In this document: piece after piece, positions 44,236 to 53,932 of the stretch | How the letters are laid out: each line of letters opens with the position of its first letter | Numbering within the stretch: position 1 is the first letter of the stretch | Source: Limnochorda sp. LNt | Lineage (GTDB): Bacteria; Bacillota; Limnochordia; Limnochordales; Geochordaceae | NCBI RefSeq assembly: GCF_035593265.1 | Contig: NZ_CP141614.1 | Span: 2,666,001 to 2,730,000 of the forward strand | Direction: 5' to 3' | DNA: 64,000 nucleotides | The notes under the pieces: generated by a model | Database searches by the model: none | What the model was told of the DNA's origin: nothing | The model's input: only the letters and a program-made list of their open reading frames with translations | Position numbers and translations under genes: made by a program

Positions 44236-45264
44236 ATGCGTGCGTGCAAAGCCGCGTCCTGGCTCTTGCTGACCGCCCTGGTGGCGGCGTCGCTGGTCGG
44301 CGAGCCCGGCGCGACACCGGCGGCCGCCGGCTCGCCGCCGACCGTGGTGCGTCTCTCCGAGGTGGTGCGCTCGGTCTTCTACGCGCCGCAGTACGTGGCC
44401 CTGGCCCTGGGGTTCTTCGAGGACGAGGGCTTGCGCATCGAGCTCTCGACGGCCCAGGGCGCCGACAAGGGCATGGCGGCGCTGCTGTCGGGCACCGTCG
44501 ACATCGGCTTCTTCGGGCCGGAGGCCACCGTCTACGTCTACCAGCGCGGCGCGCCGGACCCGGTCATCGGCTTCGCCCAGCTGACGGCCCGGGACGGCTC
44601 CTTCCTCATGGCCCGCCATCCGACGCCGCAGTTCAGCTGGACGGAGCTGAGGGGCAAGACCGTCATCGGGGGGCGCAAGGGTGGCGTGCCCGAGATGGTG
44701 CTGGAGTGGATCCTGCGCCAGCACGGCCTGGAGCCGCACCGGGACGTCACCATCGTCACTCACCTCGCCTTCGAGGCCGCACCCGGCGCCTTCGAGGGAG
44801 GCCTGGGCGACTACGTCGCGCAGTTCGAACCGACGATGAGCGCGATGGAGAAACGGGGCATCGGCAAGGTCGTCGCCTCGCTGGGGGTAGACGGCGGGCC
44901 CATCACCTACACGCTCTACCACGCTCGCAAGAGCTACCTCGAGCGCAATTCGGACGTCATCCAGCGCTTCACCAACGCCATCGACCGGGGCCTGCGCTGG
45001 GTGCGGGAGCACTCACCCGAGGAGATCGCCGAGGTCGTGGCGCCGTTCTTCCCCGGCATCGAGCAGGACGTCCTGATCCTGACCCTGCGCCGCTACCGTG
45101 ACCAGGAGACCTGGCCCGAGACACCGGCCATCTCGCGGGAAGGCTTCGAGCACCTGCTCGAGGTGATGGAGGCCGCCGGCGAGCTGGCCGCTCGGGTGGA
45201 GTTCGACGCCATCATGACCAACCGCTTCGCCGAGCGGGCGGCGGAGATCGCCGAGGGACGATGA
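44236..45264 (+). CDS. ABC transporter substrate-binding protein (NMT1/SsuA type)
   Basis: 342 residues with a signal peptide (ASWLLLTALVAASLVGEPGA). Family features: YAPQYVALALGFFEDEGLRI, LLSGTVDIGFFGPEATVYVY and LRGKTVIGGRKGGVPEMVLE, as in NitT/TauT/ThiY binding proteins. Substrate could be a sulfonate, nitrate or thiamine precursor; nothing here decides. It ends in an ATGA overlap with the ATPase gene. Confidence 0.85.
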   Translation: MRACKAASWLLLTALVAASLVGEPGATPAAAGSPPTVVRLSEVVRSVFYAPQYVALALGFFEDEGLRIELSTAQGADKGMAALLSGTVDIGFFGPEATVYVYQRGAPDPVIGFAQLTARDGSFLMARHPTPQFSWTELRGKTVIGGRKGGVPEMVLEWILRQHGLEPHRDVTIVTHLAFEAAPGAFEGGLGDYVAQFEPTMSAMEKRGIGKVVASLGVDGGPITYTLYHARKSYLERNSDVIQRFTNAIDRGLRWVREHSPEEIAEVVAPFFPGIEQDVLILTLRRYRDQETWPETPAISREGFEHLLEVMEAAGELAARVEFDAIMTNRFAERAAEIAEGR

Positions 45265-46049
45265 GGGGCGCCGACGTCGTCGTCCGGGACCTCTGGTTCA
45301 GCTACCACGTCCCCCAGGGGGAGACGCCCGCCCTGGCCGGACTCTCCTTGCGGGTGCGTGGCGGGGAGTTCGTGGGGATCGTGGGGCCCAGCGGGTGCGG
45401 CAAGAGCACCCTCTTCTCCCTCATCGCCGGGCTGTTGCGCCCCGAGCGTGGCGAGGTGCACATCGACGGCCAGACGGTGACGGGGCCCCGCTCCGACGTG
45501 GCGTACATGCTGCAGCAAGACTGCCTGCTGGAGTGGCGCACCGTTCTCGACAACGCACTGCTGGGGCTGGAGGTGAGGGGGATGCGCACCCCCGAGCGGG
45601 TGACCCGCGTGCGGGAGCTGCTGGCCCGATCGGGGCTGGCCGGCTTCGAGCACCGCTTGCCCCGGGAGCTGTCGGGCGGCATGCGCCAGCGCACGGCCCT
45701 GGTGCGCACCCTGGCCCTGGAGCCGAGGGTGGTGCTGCTCGACGAGCCCTTCTCGGCGGTCGACGCCCAGACCCGGCTGCTGCTGGAGGAAGAGGTCGGG
45801 CTGGCGCTGCGGGAGCGGCAGGCCACGGTGCTGCTCGTCACCCACGACATCGGCGAGGCGGTGGCCATGTGCGATCGGGTGGTCGTGCTGACCCACCGGC
45901 CGGCCCGCGTCAAGCGCGAGTATCGCATCGCCCTGGGCCCCAGCGCCGACCACTCGCCGGTCGCGGCGCGTCAGTCGTCCCGCTTCTCCCACTACTTCAG
46001 CGCGATATGGGCCGACCTCGAGGTGCAGGTGAAGCCCGGTGTCGCATGA
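45261..46049 (+). CDS. ABC transporter ATPase (SsuB/TauB type)
   Basis: 262 residues: Walker [10 protein letters not shown]-loop [10 protein letters not shown], signature LSGGMRQR, Walker B VVLLDEP, switch [14 protein letters not shown]. Coupled by overlap to both neighbours (4 bases upstream, 11 downstream). Confidence 0.92.
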
Positions 46050-46848
46050 GCACGCATCGCTGGCCCATCGGCGCTACCGGAGGGCGCGCCGGCGCCACCG
46101 ATGGAGCGTGGCGGCCGGCCAGGTCGTGGTGCTGGTGGCCCTGCTGGCGGCCTGGCAGGCGTCGGCCGACCTGGGGCTGGTCTCCGCCTTCCTCACCAGC
46201 CGGCCGACGGCCGTCGTGGAGACCATCGCCCGCCTGGCCGCGCAGGGCCAGCTCTGGGGACACGTGGCCCACACGACGCTCGGCACCGTGGTCGGCTTCG
46301 CCGCCGGCACCGGGCTCGGCGTGGCCATCGCGGCGGTGCTGTGGTGGTCGCCCTTCCTGGCGAGGGTCTTGGAGCCGTACCTGGTGGTCTTCAACGCCAT
46401 CCCCAAGGTAGCGCTGGGCCCCCTCTTCATCGTCTGGCTCGGGACCAACATCCGGGCCGTCATGGCCATGGGGATCGCCATCACCGTCGTCATCGCCGTG
46501 GTGGTGGTCTTCGCCGCCTTCCAGGAGACGGACCCGGCGCGCCTGACGCTGCTGCGCTCCCTGGGCGCCAGCCGGTGGCAGCAATTTCGACTGGTGGTGG
46601 TGCCGGCCTCGGTACCGGCGGTCCTGGCGGCGCTCAAGGCCAACGTGGGGTTGGCCCTGGTGGGGGCGGTGACGGGCGAGTTCCTGGCCGGGGGCAGAGG
46701 GCTCGGCTACCTCATCGTCTACGGCGGTCAGGTCTTCGACATGAACCTGGTGATGGCCAGCCTCATGCTGCTGGTGGTGCTGTCGACCGCCCTCTACGGT
46801 GCGGTTTCGCTGGCGGAGAGGGTCGTGCGACGGCGGTTCGCCGGGTAG
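46039..46848 (+). CDS. ABC transporter permease (SsuC type)
   Basis: 269 residues, six TM helices, with the binding-protein-dependent EAA loop LRSLGASRWQQFRLVVVPAS. GTG 46039 begins 11 bases inside the ATPase gene. Its 3' end overlaps the opposite-strand ClC gene by 55 bases. Confidence 0.9.
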   Translation: MSHEHASLAHRRYRRARRRHRWSVAAGQVVVLVALLAAWQASADLGLVSAFLTSRPTAVVETIARLAAQGQLWGHVAHTTLGTVVGFAAGTGLGVAIAAVLWWSPFLARVLEPYLVVFNAIPKVALGPLFIVWLGTNIRAVMAMGIAITVVIAVVVVFAAFQETDPARLTLLRSLGASRWQQFRLVVVPASVPAVLAALKANVGLALVGAVTGEFLAGGRGLGYLIVYGGQVFDMNLVMASLMLLVVLSTALYGAVSLAERVVRRRFAG

Positions 46849-48960: not shown

Positions 48961-50061
48961 CTACGCCACGCTGACGCCCGCCAGCCGGCGCGCACCGAGC
49001 CGGCGGGGGTGGGAGGAGAGGAGGCTGGCGTCGACCGGGGGCTCGGGCGGCGTCCACGCCTCTCGGTAGCCGAACTGCCGCTCCTCGTCGAAGGCCAGCA
49101 CGACGACACCCCGCGGTCGCGGGACGGCGCGAAGGGCACCGGCGTCGATGATCGCCGTCCCTGCAGCGGCGCCCACCAGGGCGTAGGCCGCCCGGGTCGT
49201 CTGCACCACACGGGCGCCCAGCCCCTGCTGGCGAGCCACGGCGAAGAGGAGCATCGCCTTGTCGAGCGGACGCCCCACGCCGTGCGTCGCGACCTGGTCG
49301 GGCAGCATCACCCGGTCATCCTCCGGAAAGATGGAGCCCGGATCCACGTGACGCCGCATCCAGGCCAGCAGCCCCTCCGGAGCCCGCACGTGACGTGCCA
49401 GGATGGTCGCCGCCAGGCTCGAGACAGCCGCCCGGGCGTACGCCTCCGGACGGTGCACGATCAGGGTCTGGTAGGCGTAGAGAGCCAGCGTGTGGACCGA
49501 TTGCGGCCGTTGGGCGCTGGCGCTGAAGACCTCGCGCCGCACCTCGAGCACGAGAGCCTCTGGATCGACGGAGGGGCGGCCGGCTGAGCGGGCCAGCAAC
49601 TCAGCCCCTGCGGCCCCGATCGCCGTACGCGTGCCGGACCAGTCCACCGCCGCCCAACCAGGACGCTGTCGGCCGGGTCGGGGCCACGCCCTGGCCTCCT
49701 CGGGTAACAGGCGCCGGGCCTCTCCTGGTGCCCGGCGCCTGTCATCGGTGCGGCTCGCCTGACTCTGCGTCGTGCGTGAGGCGGTAGCTGGGCTGCCCTG
49801 CTCACGCGCCCCTGGCCCGTCCGACAGCCATCGCAGCCATGGCGCGTCGCGCCGTCCTGCCCGCCCCGTCTGGACAGTACCGCTGGCGAGCACCTCGGAC
49901 ATCTGGCAGGCGAGCACCAGGGCCTGCTCGAGCTCGGGGCAACCCTCCAGGTCACAGCGGGCCTTGCGCGCCGCGGCGGCGTACAGCTCCACCGGACCCG
50001 GATGGTCCGATGCGGCGACGAGGTCGATGAGCTCGCTCACCTGTCGTTGCTCCACACGCAA
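48961..50061 (-). CDS. Transglutaminase-like protein lacking the usual catalytic cysteine
   Basis: 366 residues. The C-terminal half resembles the transglutaminase core: GVGRPLDKAMLLFAVARQQG then LGARVVQTTRAAYALVG, and IIDAGALRAVPRPRG. At the place where active enzymes have Cys (GxC) this protein has Gly-Val-Gly, so it may be inactive. The N-terminal 150 residues are helical and Arg/Pro-rich. TTG 50061 or GTG 50055 are possible starts. Function unknown. Confidence 0.5.
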   Translation of the reverse strand: MRVEQRQVSELIDLVAASDHPGPVELYAAAARKARCDLEGCPELEQALVLACQMSEVLASGTVQTGRAGRRDAPWLRWLSDGPGAREQGSPATASRTTQSQASRTDDRRRAPGEARRLLPEEARAWPRPGRQRPGWAAVDWSGTRTAIGAAGAELLARSAGRPSVDPEALVLEVRREVFSASAQRPQSVHTLALYAYQTLIVHRPEAYARAAVSSLAATILARHVRAPEGLLAWMRRHVDPGSIFPEDDRVMLPDQVATHGVGRPLDKAMLLFAVARQQGLGARVVQTTRAAYALVGAAAGTAIIDAGALRAVPRPRGVVVLAFDEERQFGYREAWTPPEPPVDASLLSSHPRRLGARRLAGVSVA

Positions 50062-50137: not shown

Positions 50138-50296
50138 CTAGAAGGGAAACGGCCCCTCGCCCCCTGGATCACGCAAGGGCACGATACGTCCCGCGGCAGC
50201 CGACGCTGTCCCGTCATCGATCCACAGAGTCCCCGTGCCGACCAGCCCGAGAACCAACACCACGGCCAACAGGACAGTCGCAACGAGACGCTTCAC
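50138..50296 (-). CDS. Small secreted peptide, candidate pheromone precursor
   Basis: 52 residues. GTG 50296 follows GAGGGGGG by 6 bases. MKRLVATVLLAVVLVLGLVG is a signal segment; TASA-AAG near residue 34 is a likely signal-peptidase site, leaving a tail of about 18 residues ending RDPGGEGPFPF. It is divergent from an HTH-TPR regulator gene 173 bases away and has its own promoter. That layout (regulator with TPR sensor plus short exported peptide) is the hallmark of RRNPP quorum-sensing pairs. The pheromone role is inferred. Confidence 0.65.
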   Translation of the reverse strand: MKRLVATVLLAVVLVLGLVGTGTLWIDDGTASAAAGRIVPLRDPGGEGPFPF

Positions 50297-50341
50297 GATG
50301 GGCCCCCCTCTACTGGACTTTGGGAGCAAGGTCATGTCTAA

Positions 50342-50370
50342 GAAATAGCACTATAGGCGCATCCTGTCAA
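50342..50370 (-). promoter_or_regulatory. Promoter of the small-peptide gene
   Basis: Minus strand: perfect -35 TTGACA (50365-50370), 17-base spacer, extended -10 TGcTATTTC (-10 at 50342-50347). The spacer contains CTATAG (ACTATAG read on the plus strand, 50350-50356), also found in the regulator promoter. Confidence 0.6.
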
Positions 50371-50420
50371 TCGAACGCGCGTGCGATCTCTTCATACAAT
50401 TACGTCTTTGCTCTGTGTGT

Positions 50421-50431
50421 GATACTATAGT
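50421..50431 (+). promoter_or_regulatory. Promoter (-10) and palindrome of the HTH-TPR regulator
   Basis: Extended -10 TGaTACTAT (-10 at 50423-50428). The 8-bp palindrome ACTATAGT (50424-50431) overlaps it; ACTATAG recurs at 50350-50356 in the peptide promoter. No clear -35. Confidence 0.5.
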
Positions 50432-50469
50432 CTCAACTCCGACTCTCGCACGAAAGGAGGCCCGCGACC

Positions 50470-51879
50470 GTGACGGTAAGCGAGAAGATTGCACACCTCT
50501 TCCGCACGGTGCGCCGCCCCGACGGTAAGCCGTGGACGCTCCAAGATGTCGCCAGTGCGACCGGCCTCTCCGTGTCGTACATCTGGCGCTTACGCTCTGG
50601 CAAGGCGACCAACCCGACCAAGGCCGTGTTGGAGCGTCTCTCAGCCGTCTTCGGCGTTCCGGTTGGCTACTTCATGGACGACGCTCCTGTAGACCCCCAG
50701 ACGTCGACATCGACCACCGGCAAGGCGCAGGCTGTGGTGGAGCAGCTGTTGCGCGAGGCGACGGACGCCTACCGGAGCCATGACCTGGGACGGGCCGAGC
50801 AGGCGGCTCGGCAGGCGCTGCAGCACTGTCGAGCGGTCCACGATGATGTCATGGCCGGGCGCTGCCTGTCGGCTCTGGCACACATCCTGTCCGCGGCAGG
50901 ACGGTCCCAGGAGGCGGCGACCGCCATCTCCGAGGCTCTGCGCCTCCTGGGGGGGCCCAAGGCCGGCGCCAGCTGGCTGCGGGCTGTGTTGACACTCTCT
51001 CGCATCGAGTTCCTCGAGGAGCGCTTTAGCCACGCGTACTTCCATGCACGGCGCGCCCTGGCCGCCATCGAGCTGGGTGAAGGAGATGACGAACTTCGCC
51101 TGTACGTCCTGTACTCGGTTGGGGTGACCGCCCGTCGGGTCGGCCGGCCGGAGGAGGCGATCGTCTACTTGGAGCAGGCGACGCCCCTTGCGGAGCGCTT
51201 GGGCACGCCCTACCTGGCCGACAACCTGATGAACCGGGGTCTGGCATACCTCGACGCCGAACAACCGGAGCGCTCGCTGGAATACCTGACGAAGGCACTC
51301 GGCATGTATGCGGCGTGTCGTCTGCCCAAAGGGGTGGCCTGGGCACAACACAACATCGGCCTGGCCTACCAGAAGCTAGGGAGGTGGACGGAGGCCATCG
51401 AGTCGCTCACCAAGAGCCTGGGTTCCAACGAGGCGCTCGGCGACCTGCGTATCATCCTCTACAACCACATGGAGCTCGGCTGGTCCTACGCCAACGTCGG
51501 TCAGCGGGAGATGGCGCTACGCCACGGCCAGGCCGCCCTCGCGCTCGCGCAGGAGCACGACTGGGCCGGAGACCGCGCACGCGCCCACTGGCACCTGGCG
51601 CGTGCGCTGGCCAAGCTGGGCGACATGGAGGAGGCCATGACGCACTACGAGGCCGCACTCCGTCTGCTGGAGGAGCTCGAGCTCGAGGCCGAGCTGGCGC
51701 GCGTGCAGGTCGAAGCCGGTGACCTGCTCATGCAGCAGGGCGACGCGGTCCGGGCGGCCCAGCTCTACCGCCAGGCGGCCACCCTGGTCATGCACGCGCC
51801 GTCGCTCCAGCGCTACTTGATGGCGACCCCACCGATGGAGTTCCATGAGAGCGAGATCGCCCTCGGGTGGCGCCACTGA
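50470..51879 (+). CDS. HTH-TPR transcriptional regulator (RRNPP-like)
   Basis: 469 residues. The XRE-type HTH is residues 5-70: RPDGKPWTLQDVASATGLSV, SYIWRLRSGKATNPTKAVLE, LSAVFGVPVGYFMDD. The rest (about 85-455) is a chain of tetratricopeptide repeats, for example NRGLAYLDAEQPERSLEYLT, HNIGLAYQKLGRWTEAIESL and WHLARALAKLGDMEEAMTHY. This is the NprR/PlcR/Rap-like design in which the TPR groove binds a signal peptide. GTG 50470 has AAAGGAGG 10 bases upstream. Its likely ligand is the peptide encoded at 50138-50296. Confidence 0.82.
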   Translation: MTVSEKIAHLFRTVRRPDGKPWTLQDVASATGLSVSYIWRLRSGKATNPTKAVLERLSAVFGVPVGYFMDDAPVDPQTSTSTTGKAQAVVEQLLREATDAYRSHDLGRAEQAARQALQHCRAVHDDVMAGRCLSALAHILSAAGRSQEAATAISEALRLLGGPKAGASWLRAVLTLSRIEFLEERFSHAYFHARRALAAIELGEGDDELRLYVLYSVGVTARRVGRPEEAIVYLEQATPLAERLGTPYLADNLMNRGLAYLDAEQPERSLEYLTKALGMYAACRLPKGVAWAQHNIGLAYQKLGRWTEAIESLTKSLGSNEALGDLRIILYNHMELGWSYANVGQREMALRHGQAALALAQEHDWAGDRARAHWHLARALAKLGDMEEAMTHYEAALRLLEELELEAELARVQVEAGDLLMQQGDAVRAAQLYRQAATLVMHAPSLQRYLMATPPMEFHESEIALGWRH

Positions 51880-52049: not shown

Positions 52050-53932
52050 GCTGGCGTTGTACAGTAAGTGGCCACAACCCGCCCCCACCCGCACGGTGCG
52101 AAGCGGGTTTGCGGGCCATTCCCCGTAGAAAAACGCGGATGCGCGTAGACACAACCACAAAAGATGTAGCTATTGACACAGCGTGGTAAACGAGTTACGA
52201 TGTAGGCACGATGTACGTGCGCACCGTCACTTCCAAGGGCATCCAATACGCCCAGCTTGCCCATAACGTCCGGGACCTCAAGACTGGACAGCCCCGGGCC
52301 CAGGTGCTGTACACCTTCGGCCGGGTCGACCAGCTCGACCTGGACGCGCTGCGCCGCCTGGTGCGCAGCATCGCCCGGTTCCTGCCCCCGACGAGCAGGC
52401 CCAACTGCAGAAGCGATCTCGGCATGGAGTGGCCCTTTCGGTACCTGGGCTCCCCGAAGCTGGGCGGGACGTGGCTTTCGGACGGGCTGTGGCGGCGGCT
52501 GGGCATCCAGAAGACCTTGCAGCGCCTGCTCAAGCGCTGCCACTACCAGACCCCCATCGAGCGGCTCCTCTTCGCCATGGCGGCCAACCGGGCCTGGCGC
52601 CGTCCAGCAAGCCGGCCATCGAGAAGTGGGTGGCGCAGGACGTCTACATCGACCAGCCGCCCGCGGTGGAAGTCCACCAGCTCTACCGGCCATGGACTTT
52701 CTGCTGGAGGCTGCCGAGGCGATCCAGCGCGAGGTCTTCTGGACGCTGGCCAACCTCTTCAACCTCGAAGTGGACGTCATCTTCTTCGATACGACGACGG
52801 CGTACTTCGAAATCGAGGGCGAGGACGCCGACGGGTTGCGCCGCTGGGGGCACAGCGCCGATGATCATCCGAAGATGGCCCAGGTGGTCATCGGCTTGGC
52901 CGTGACCCGGGACGGCATCCCGGTCCGCTGCTGGGTCTGGCCCGGCAACACCGGCGACCAGAACGTCGTGGCCGAGGTCAAACGGGATCTCAACGGCTGG
53001 AAGCTCAACCGGGTGGTCGTGGTGTTGGACACGGGCTTCAACTCCGAGGCGAACCGCCGCATCCTGCAGGGCGCCGGCGATCACTACATCATCGGGGAGA
53101 AGTTGCGGGTGGGCCCCCAGGGGTGCCCGCGGAGGCGCTGCGCCGGGCGGCAAGTACCGCAGGCTTCCCGACGGGCTGGAGATCAAGGAGGTCGTGGTCG
53201 GAGGGGATAGCGCCGCCCGCCGGCGCTTCGTCATCGTCCGCAACCCCGAGGAGGCCGAGCGGGACCGCCAGAAGCGGGAGTCCATCCTGGCCGAGCTTCG
53301 CCAGCGGCTCGAAGCGCTCAAACAGAAGCAGGGCGAGGCGCATACCAAGGCAGCCTGCGAGCTGCGGGCCCACGAGACCTTCGGCCGCTACCTGCGCCAG
53401 ACGTGGGCGCGCGACTGGTCATCGACGCGGCCAAGGTTCGCCGAGAAGCCGCCCTCGACGGGAAGTTCGTGATCGGCAGCTCCGACGACTTTTGCCCGCC
53501 GAAGACCTGGTCTACGGCTACAAGCAACTCTGGCAGGTGGAACGGGTGCACCGGGACCTGAAGCACACGGTCGACGTCCGGCCGATGTACCACCGGCTCG
53601 ACGACCGCATCCGGTCCCACGTGCTGCTGTGCTGGCTGGCCCTCCTCATGATCCGGGTGGCCGAGAACGAGACGGGCCAGACCTGGCGACAGATGCGGGA
53701 TCTGGTCGCCCCATCGACGTGGGCCGCCACGCCACCGCCCACGGCGAGGTCTGGCAGGTCCGCCCCCTCACCGAAGAGCAGAAGGCGCTGTTTCAGGCCC
53801 TGAAGGTCGACCGACCGCCCCACTACCTGAAGATTGTGACGCCCACCCGAAAAACGGCGTAGATACAACCGCTTTGTCCACCTCAGCCCTTATAGATCCC
53901 GTCATGTCGCTCTTTGTCACCTTGAATTGTCG

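What the first reader, a model, noticed from the sequence alone, without database searches (positions are those of the whole stretch)
50138..51879. Candidate RRNPP-type peptide quorum-sensing pair
A 52-residue exported peptide gene with its own TTGACA promoter and ribosome site is divergent from an XRE-TPR regulator. Both promoters carry ACTATAG (50350-50356 inside the peptide promoter spacer; ACTATAGT at 50424-50431 on the regulator -10). TPR regulators paired with tiny exported pro-peptides are the known NprR/PlcR/Rap design, but I know of no described pair with this peptide tail (about 18 residues ending RDPGGEGPFPF). If right, it is a new pheromone circuit in a diderm high-GC Bacillota lineage.
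Basis: partly seen in the sequence, partly recalled or inferred. Interest (0 to 1): 0.85.

Follow-up and report, generated by a model that had tools for sequence, protein, structure and literature searches.

The report
Self-contained peptide-signal regulator gene pair
A DNA-binding TPR regulator and a tiny exported peptide gene sit back to back and recur as a pair in a relative and in a second copy in the same genome, so this is very probably an undescribed bacterial peptide-signalling switch of the RRNPP type, though no step of the signalling has been tested.

Summary
Window 50138-50296(-) encodes a 52-aa exported-type propeptide, divergent (173-bp gap) from a 469-aa XRE-TPR regulator (50470-51879). 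The only close homologues found (about 50% identity; an old paralogue in the same genome and one copy in a sister genus) each have a divergent 52/53-aa exported peptide at the same place, with the same signal-peptide layout, an AxA cleavage motif and a DPG...(F/W)P tail. All three regulator promoters and two of three peptide promoters carry ACTATARKCKCA. Exact copies occur nowhere else in either genome, and none in two relatives without the pair. The AlphaFold2 model is HTH plus nine TPRs, like NprR/Rap.

Best reading: an autoregulated RRNPP-like pheromone cassette, undescribed in the papers searched. Departures: an EspR-like HTH, no match to Pfam RNPP_C, and a host with an outer membrane. The DPG motif is not new: it is reported for arbitrium (AimR) and Paenibacillaceae subfamily-08 peptides, and it also occurs beside more distant XRE-TPR regulators in another family of the class. 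Export, processing, import, binding and targets are inferred, not shown.

The parts
50138..50296 (-). propeptide gene, 52 codons, GTG start
   Evidence: conserved divergent homologues L002:3017-3175 and L004:3046-3207; third-position-biased substitutions
50198..50296 (-). predicted Sec signal peptide, residues 1-33 (KR, hydrophobic core, ASA cleavage motif)
   Evidence: sequence; TASA/YALA/YASA at the same aligned position in the three peptides; no SignalP run
50141..50170 (-). candidate signal tail DPGGEGPFPF (residues 43-52)
   Evidence: D, P and G invariant in the three peptides, followed by (F/W)P
50303..50310 (-). ribosome-binding-like GAGGGGGG of the peptide gene
   Evidence: sequence; GAGGGG-type sites also before the two homologues
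50365..50370 (-). TTGACA, -35-like element of the peptide promoter
   Evidence: TTGAC kept in all three loci; -10 weak, no consensus promoter found
50350..50361 (+). operator-like site ACTATAGGCGCA in the peptide promoter spacer
   Evidence: same site in G002 (ACTATAAGCGCA)
50420..50435 (+). operator-like dyad TGATACTATAGTCTCA over the regulator's -10 region
   Evidence: ACTATAGT conserved in all three regulator promoters
50453..50460 (+). Shine-Dalgarno AAAGGAGG of the regulator gene
50470..51879 (+). XRE-TPR regulator, 469 aa (proposed receptor)
50470..50673 (+). N-terminal XRE helix-turn-helix (residues 1-68), EspR-like
50713..51792 (+). nine-TPR domain (residues 82-441); TPR6-8 most conserved

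Best explanation
The pair is a self-contained, autoregulated peptide-pheromone cassette that works like RRNPP systems. The mini-gene makes a Sec-exported propeptide. Signal peptidase cuts after the AxA motif, and further trimming yields a short C-terminal peptide containing DPG. The peptide is re-imported by an oligopeptide permease and binds the groove of the nine-TPR regulator, changing how the N-terminal HTH dimer sits on the ACTATAG operators. Because the operators lie on the regulator's -10 region and inside the peptide promoter, the regulator most likely represses both promoters, and peptide binding relieves this (positive feedback). Shown here: the conserved gene pair, conserved tail, shared operator motif and nine-TPR model. 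Inferred: export, cleavage, import, binding, and the sign of regulation.
For: Both homologues of the regulator keep a divergent exported peptide. The peptide genes vary as coding sequence and such ORFs are rare by chance. ACTATARKCKCA has 3 exact sites in G000 and 2 in G002, all in these intergenic regions, and 0 in G001 and G003, which lack the regulator. AF2 mean pLDDT 84 with HTH plus 18 TPR helices. Whole-TPR alignment to RapI (Z 28.5, rmsd 4.5, 355 residues) and NprR (Z 27.8, rmsd 4.8, 351 residues). About 15 oligopeptide-binding-protein loci per genome offer candidate importers. Lengths and spacing fall in the RRNPP_detector ranges. More distant XRE-TPR regulators in family f12 of the class have divergent peptides with DPG tails (L070, L071, L072), and one of those regulators matches Pfam RNPP_C.
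Against: The window regulator's two homologues do not match Pfam RNPP_C at E 0.01. Generic TPR proteins such as LGN score higher structurally than Rap or NprR, so the fold alone does not discriminate. The paralogue's peptide promoter lacks an exact operator. Only three close pairs were found, none outside this family of genomes. No target gene beyond the cassette was identified. An outer membrane complicates release of the peptide.
Confidence: 0.78

Rival explanations
1. A cell-autonomous export sensor rather than cell-cell signalling: the propeptide is exported only to the periplasm, trimmed there and re-imported by the same cell, so the regulator reads Sec, protease or permease activity or envelope state, not population density. 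(A sub-reading of the best explanation: same parts, different purpose.)
For: An Omp85 outer-membrane gene is present in both genomes; an 8-19-residue peptide may cross an outer membrane poorly (inference); no release system is evident beside the cassettes.
Against: Tails diverge between copies (GGEGPFPF, LPIWPR, SDSWPL), as expected for diversified signal codes; no porin or permeability data.
Confidence: 0.3
2. The mini-gene is a regulated secreted peptide (effector, bacteriocin-like or envelope factor) and the TPR regulator senses some other ligand; the pair is a regulator and its target, not receptor and signal.
For: The operator motif lies in the peptide promoter; peptide-TPR binding is untested.
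Against: One-to-one co-occurrence in all three copies, including both copies in one genome; DPG tail shared with known RRNPP peptides; partner has the peptide-binding fold of Rap and NprR.
Confidence: 0.13
3. Toxin-antitoxin-like pair: small hydrophobic membrane peptide controlled by an XRE repressor.
For: Small hydrophobic peptide next to an XRE protein.
Against: Conserved features lie outside the hydrophobic core: AxA cleavage motif and DPG tail; the partner is a nine-TPR protein.
Confidence: 0.04
4. The mini-ORF is spurious and the conservation is of regulatory DNA only.
For: Short ORF in a GC-rich genome; no family match.
Against: Shuffle control, third-position bias and conserved protein features; a profile of the three peptides recovers only these three loci with strong scores.
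Confidence: 0.03

Closest known systems
NprR-NprX (and Rap-Phr): nine-TPR RRNPPA receptors
   Same: N-terminal HTH plus nine TPRs (NprR); adjacent exported propeptide whose C-terminal part is the signal; full-length TPR alignment
   Different: About 13% identity; EspR-like HTH; divergent orientation; DPG tail; outer-membrane host; no RNPP_C match for its two homologues
AimR-AimP (arbitrium) and Paenibacillaceae subfamily 08 (clan C)
   Same: DPG motif widespread in their peptides (PMC12700828); nine TPRs
   Different: The TPRs here match TPR profiles strongly, whereas clan C is described as degenerate; no phage genes were identified beside the pair; no direct sequence comparison with AimR was made
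DPG-tailed XRE-TPR pairs in family f12 of the same class (L070, L071, L072)
   Same: Divergent exported mini-gene with DPG near the C-terminus; profile-profile match over 399 columns
   Different: Ordinary XRE head (FISQxEnG); about 20% identity; not grouped with the window regulators in the tree; operator not significantly shared
EspR (Mycobacterium ESX-1 regulator)
   Same: Resembles the N-terminal HTH of this regulator (E 6e-9)
   Different: EspR has no TPR domain and no partner peptide (own knowledge)

Membership tests
RRNPP/RRNPPA quorum-sensing systems (RRNPP_detector signature, PMC10075063) | Receptor of 250-500 aa with TPRs | tested here: met
   469 aa, many TPR hits; nine TPRs in the model
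RRNPP/RRNPPA quorum-sensing systems (RRNPP_detector signature, PMC10075063) | Adjacent propeptide of 10-100 aa at -60 to 400 bp | tested here: met
   52 aa, 173 bp gap
RRNPP/RRNPPA quorum-sensing systems (RRNPP_detector signature, PMC10075063) | Sec signal on the propeptide | tested here: inconclusive
   Basic N-terminus, hydrophobic core and AxA motif in all three; SignalP not available
RRNPP/RRNPPA quorum-sensing systems (RRNPP_detector signature, PMC10075063) | Mature peptide binds the TPR domain and changes receptor activity | not testable with these tools
   needs binding and reporter assays
RRNPP/RRNPPA quorum-sensing systems (RRNPP_detector signature, PMC10075063) | N-terminal DNA-binding HTH (optional) | tested here: met
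   HTH_3 and HTH_31 over cut-off for residues 1-68
Pfam RNPP_C (PF18768) | Match to the RNPP_C model | tested here: not met
   Not in the full lists at E 0.01 for the two homologues, nor in the 25 of 28 rows shown for the window regulator; it does match the f12 regulator in L027 (E 9e-7)
AimR (arbitrium) | DPG-type peptide | tested here: met
   against the statement in PMC12700828
AimR (arbitrium) | Phage context and control of lysogeny | tested here: inconclusive
   Only nearby ORFs were looked at (ABC transporter, CLC channel, transposase-like); no dedicated prophage search; PHROG matches are general regulators and one TPR-region family of unknown function

The most novel reading that the evidence does not exclude
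An undescribed receptor-pheromone subfamily in outer-membrane-bearing Bacillota, with an EspR-like head on nine TPRs, in which a DPG-containing peptide loops through the periplasm. Together with the f12 pairs it would mean that DPG-type signals are older than arbitrium and the Paenibacillaceae systems, or arose repeatedly.
Probability: 0.3. Interest if true: 0.7.

Novelty: new member of a known kind. Interest (0 to 1): 0.5.

Why it matters
It extends peptide-receptor signalling of the RRNPP kind to a lineage of Bacillota with an outer membrane, where how an exported peptide crosses, or stays inside, that membrane is an open question. The cassette is minimal (two genes and their operators), so it is easy to test. 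The DPG tail, seen here and in a second family of the class, bears on where the DPG peptides of arbitrium phages came from.

Tried and rejected
Wider search for close regulator homologues: none beyond the three in 73 genomes of the class and 398 of the phylum. A scan of one genome per GTDB species by conserved peptide patterns gave only generic TPR matches, but that method can miss relatives. G001's partial hit is a different XRE protein of 188 aa without TPRs. Orphan peptides: the peptide profile finds only the three loci with strong scores in the class. Idea that f12 pairs share the window's operator: best match 10 of 12 in L070, reached by 153 of 1000 shuffles, and no match in L071 or L072, so rejected. 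Regulon beyond the cassette: no exact operator elsewhere; sites with one mismatch also occur in relatives without the regulator. Other XRE-TPR regulators of class and phylum have neighbouring mini-ORFs without DPG, or none. AimR was not among the listed structural matches, which does not exclude it.

Full report
What is there. The window lies in a 3.02-Mb single-contig genome. On the minus strand, 50138-50296 encodes VKRLVATVLLAVVLVLGLVGTGTLWIDDGTASAAAGRIVPLRDPGGEGPFPF. The regulator starts 173 bp away on the plus strand (50470-51879, 469 aa). Pfam finds an HTH_3 domain at residues 22-68 and TPRs over most of the rest. The peptide has no family match in Pfam or NCBIfam.

Conservation of the pair. 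The regulator has two close homologues: L002 in the same genome (50.2%) and L004 in G002 of the same family (50.0%); these two share 54.3%. Each has a divergent exported-type ORF at the same place: MRRTLAIVALLLGLVLASVPAVASGGLTGGYALAGGGRVVTTADPGLPIWPR and MRRIAAALLLAVLLVLAWVPSFTLGVAGDGYASAASSRIAPMAQDPGSDSWPL. Aligned, they share the basic start, the hydrophobic core, an AxA cleavage motif at one position, an R near the cut, and DPG followed by (F/W)P. Comparable ORFs arose in 4, 1 and 0 of 4000 shuffles, never with DPG; codon third positions vary most. A profile of the three peptides recovers only these three loci with strong scores in 73 genomes of the class. The genes around the three cassettes differ, so the two genes travel as a unit.

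Shared operator. The intergenic alignment shows conserved blocks at both promoters. ACTATARKCKCA matches exactly at 50350-50361 and 50424-50435, at the paralogue's regulator promoter, and twice in G002; nowhere else in those genomes and not at all in G001 and G003. The motif was derived from these loci, so its presence there is by construction; its absence elsewhere and its recurrence across three diverged loci are the evidence. The site over the regulator's -10 region is a near-perfect dyad, TGATACTATAGTCTCA. The paralogue's peptide promoter has no exact site. In the window the two sites are 74 bp apart, in G002 78 bp. Positions over core promoter elements suggest repression (inference).

Structure. 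The AlphaFold2 model (three sequences, mean pLDDT 84) has an HTH and 18 helices, nine TPRs. It aligns over the whole TPR domain with RapI and NprR, but LGN scores slightly higher, so the fold is compatible rather than diagnostic. Invariant residues are concentrated in TPR6 to TPR8 (fractions 0.44-0.72) against 0.14-0.41 in TPR1-5. With DPG constant and the rest of the tail variable, a division into a conserved and a variable contact region is a possible reading (inference). The HTH resembles EspR.

Relation to known systems. The pair meets the length and spacing rules of RRNPP_detector. RNPP_C is not matched by the two homologues, whereas the f12 regulator of L027 matches it. Peptides beside f12 regulators end ...ILPGPDPGPPHIL...WIPGPDPGRPGNF and ...VVLPDPGHPCFFYF. 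The tree puts the three window-type regulators on a long separate branch, with the paralogue nearer to the G002 copy; rooting over such a long branch is unsure. The window and G002 cassettes lie near the same ABC transporter (ATPase 73% identical), which would instead suggest that they correspond by position; this is unresolved. DPG is reported as widespread in AimR and Paenibacillaceae subfamily-08 peptides (PMC12700828). Among the papers listed by a search for 'RRNPP' or 'Limnochorda', none held both. The host class was not named by any tool; that it is Limnochordia-like is inference. RRNPP in diderm Bacillota is not a first: PMC12700828 lists Anoxybacter fermentans, of Halanaerobiales, a group with an outer membrane according to PMC11456536.

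Mechanism. Both genomes have an Omp85 gene and about 15 oligopeptide-binding-protein loci. Import is therefore plausible, and release across the outer membrane is the weak step; hence the main rival, a periplasmic loop within one cell.

Verdict. A real, conserved, undescribed RRNPP-like pair. The mechanism is well supported by anatomy and comparative evidence, and wholly untested by experiment.

Noticed in passing
window 52211-53862: Transposase-like gene in several broken frames directly 3' of the regulator (judged by eye only).
   Followed up: no
window 48961-50061 (-): 366-aa ORF with a weak transglutaminase-like match below cut-off, 76 bp after the peptide gene on the same strand; not seen beside the other two cassettes.
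   Followed up: partly
window 45261-46848; L033:3623-5262: An ABC transporter (ATPase 73% identical in G002) lies within about 4 kb of both the window and the G002 cassette.
   Followed up: partly
L113:965-1195 (-); L116:2735-2944 (+); L086:2650-2874 (+): Mini-ORFs beside XRE-TPR regulators of other Bacillota with repeated tails (GPIIEPY; SPVLPPDEY; ARMSIPPIKPF), like multi-copy propeptides.
   Followed up: no
L101:1070-1213 (-); L102:1070-1213 (-): Divergent exported mini-ORFs ending DDAEWP / NDAEWP beside XRE-TPR regulators.
   Followed up: no
L070 and L071 intergenic regions: The f12 pairs of G030 and G027 share TGAC[TG]ATAGG[CT]ATATCGACG (18 of 20; shuffled maximum 15), a candidate operator of their own.
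   Followed up: partly
L006:609-794 (-); L021:454-648 (-): Exported-type mini-ORFs 3' of TPR proteins without an evident HTH.
   Followed up: no
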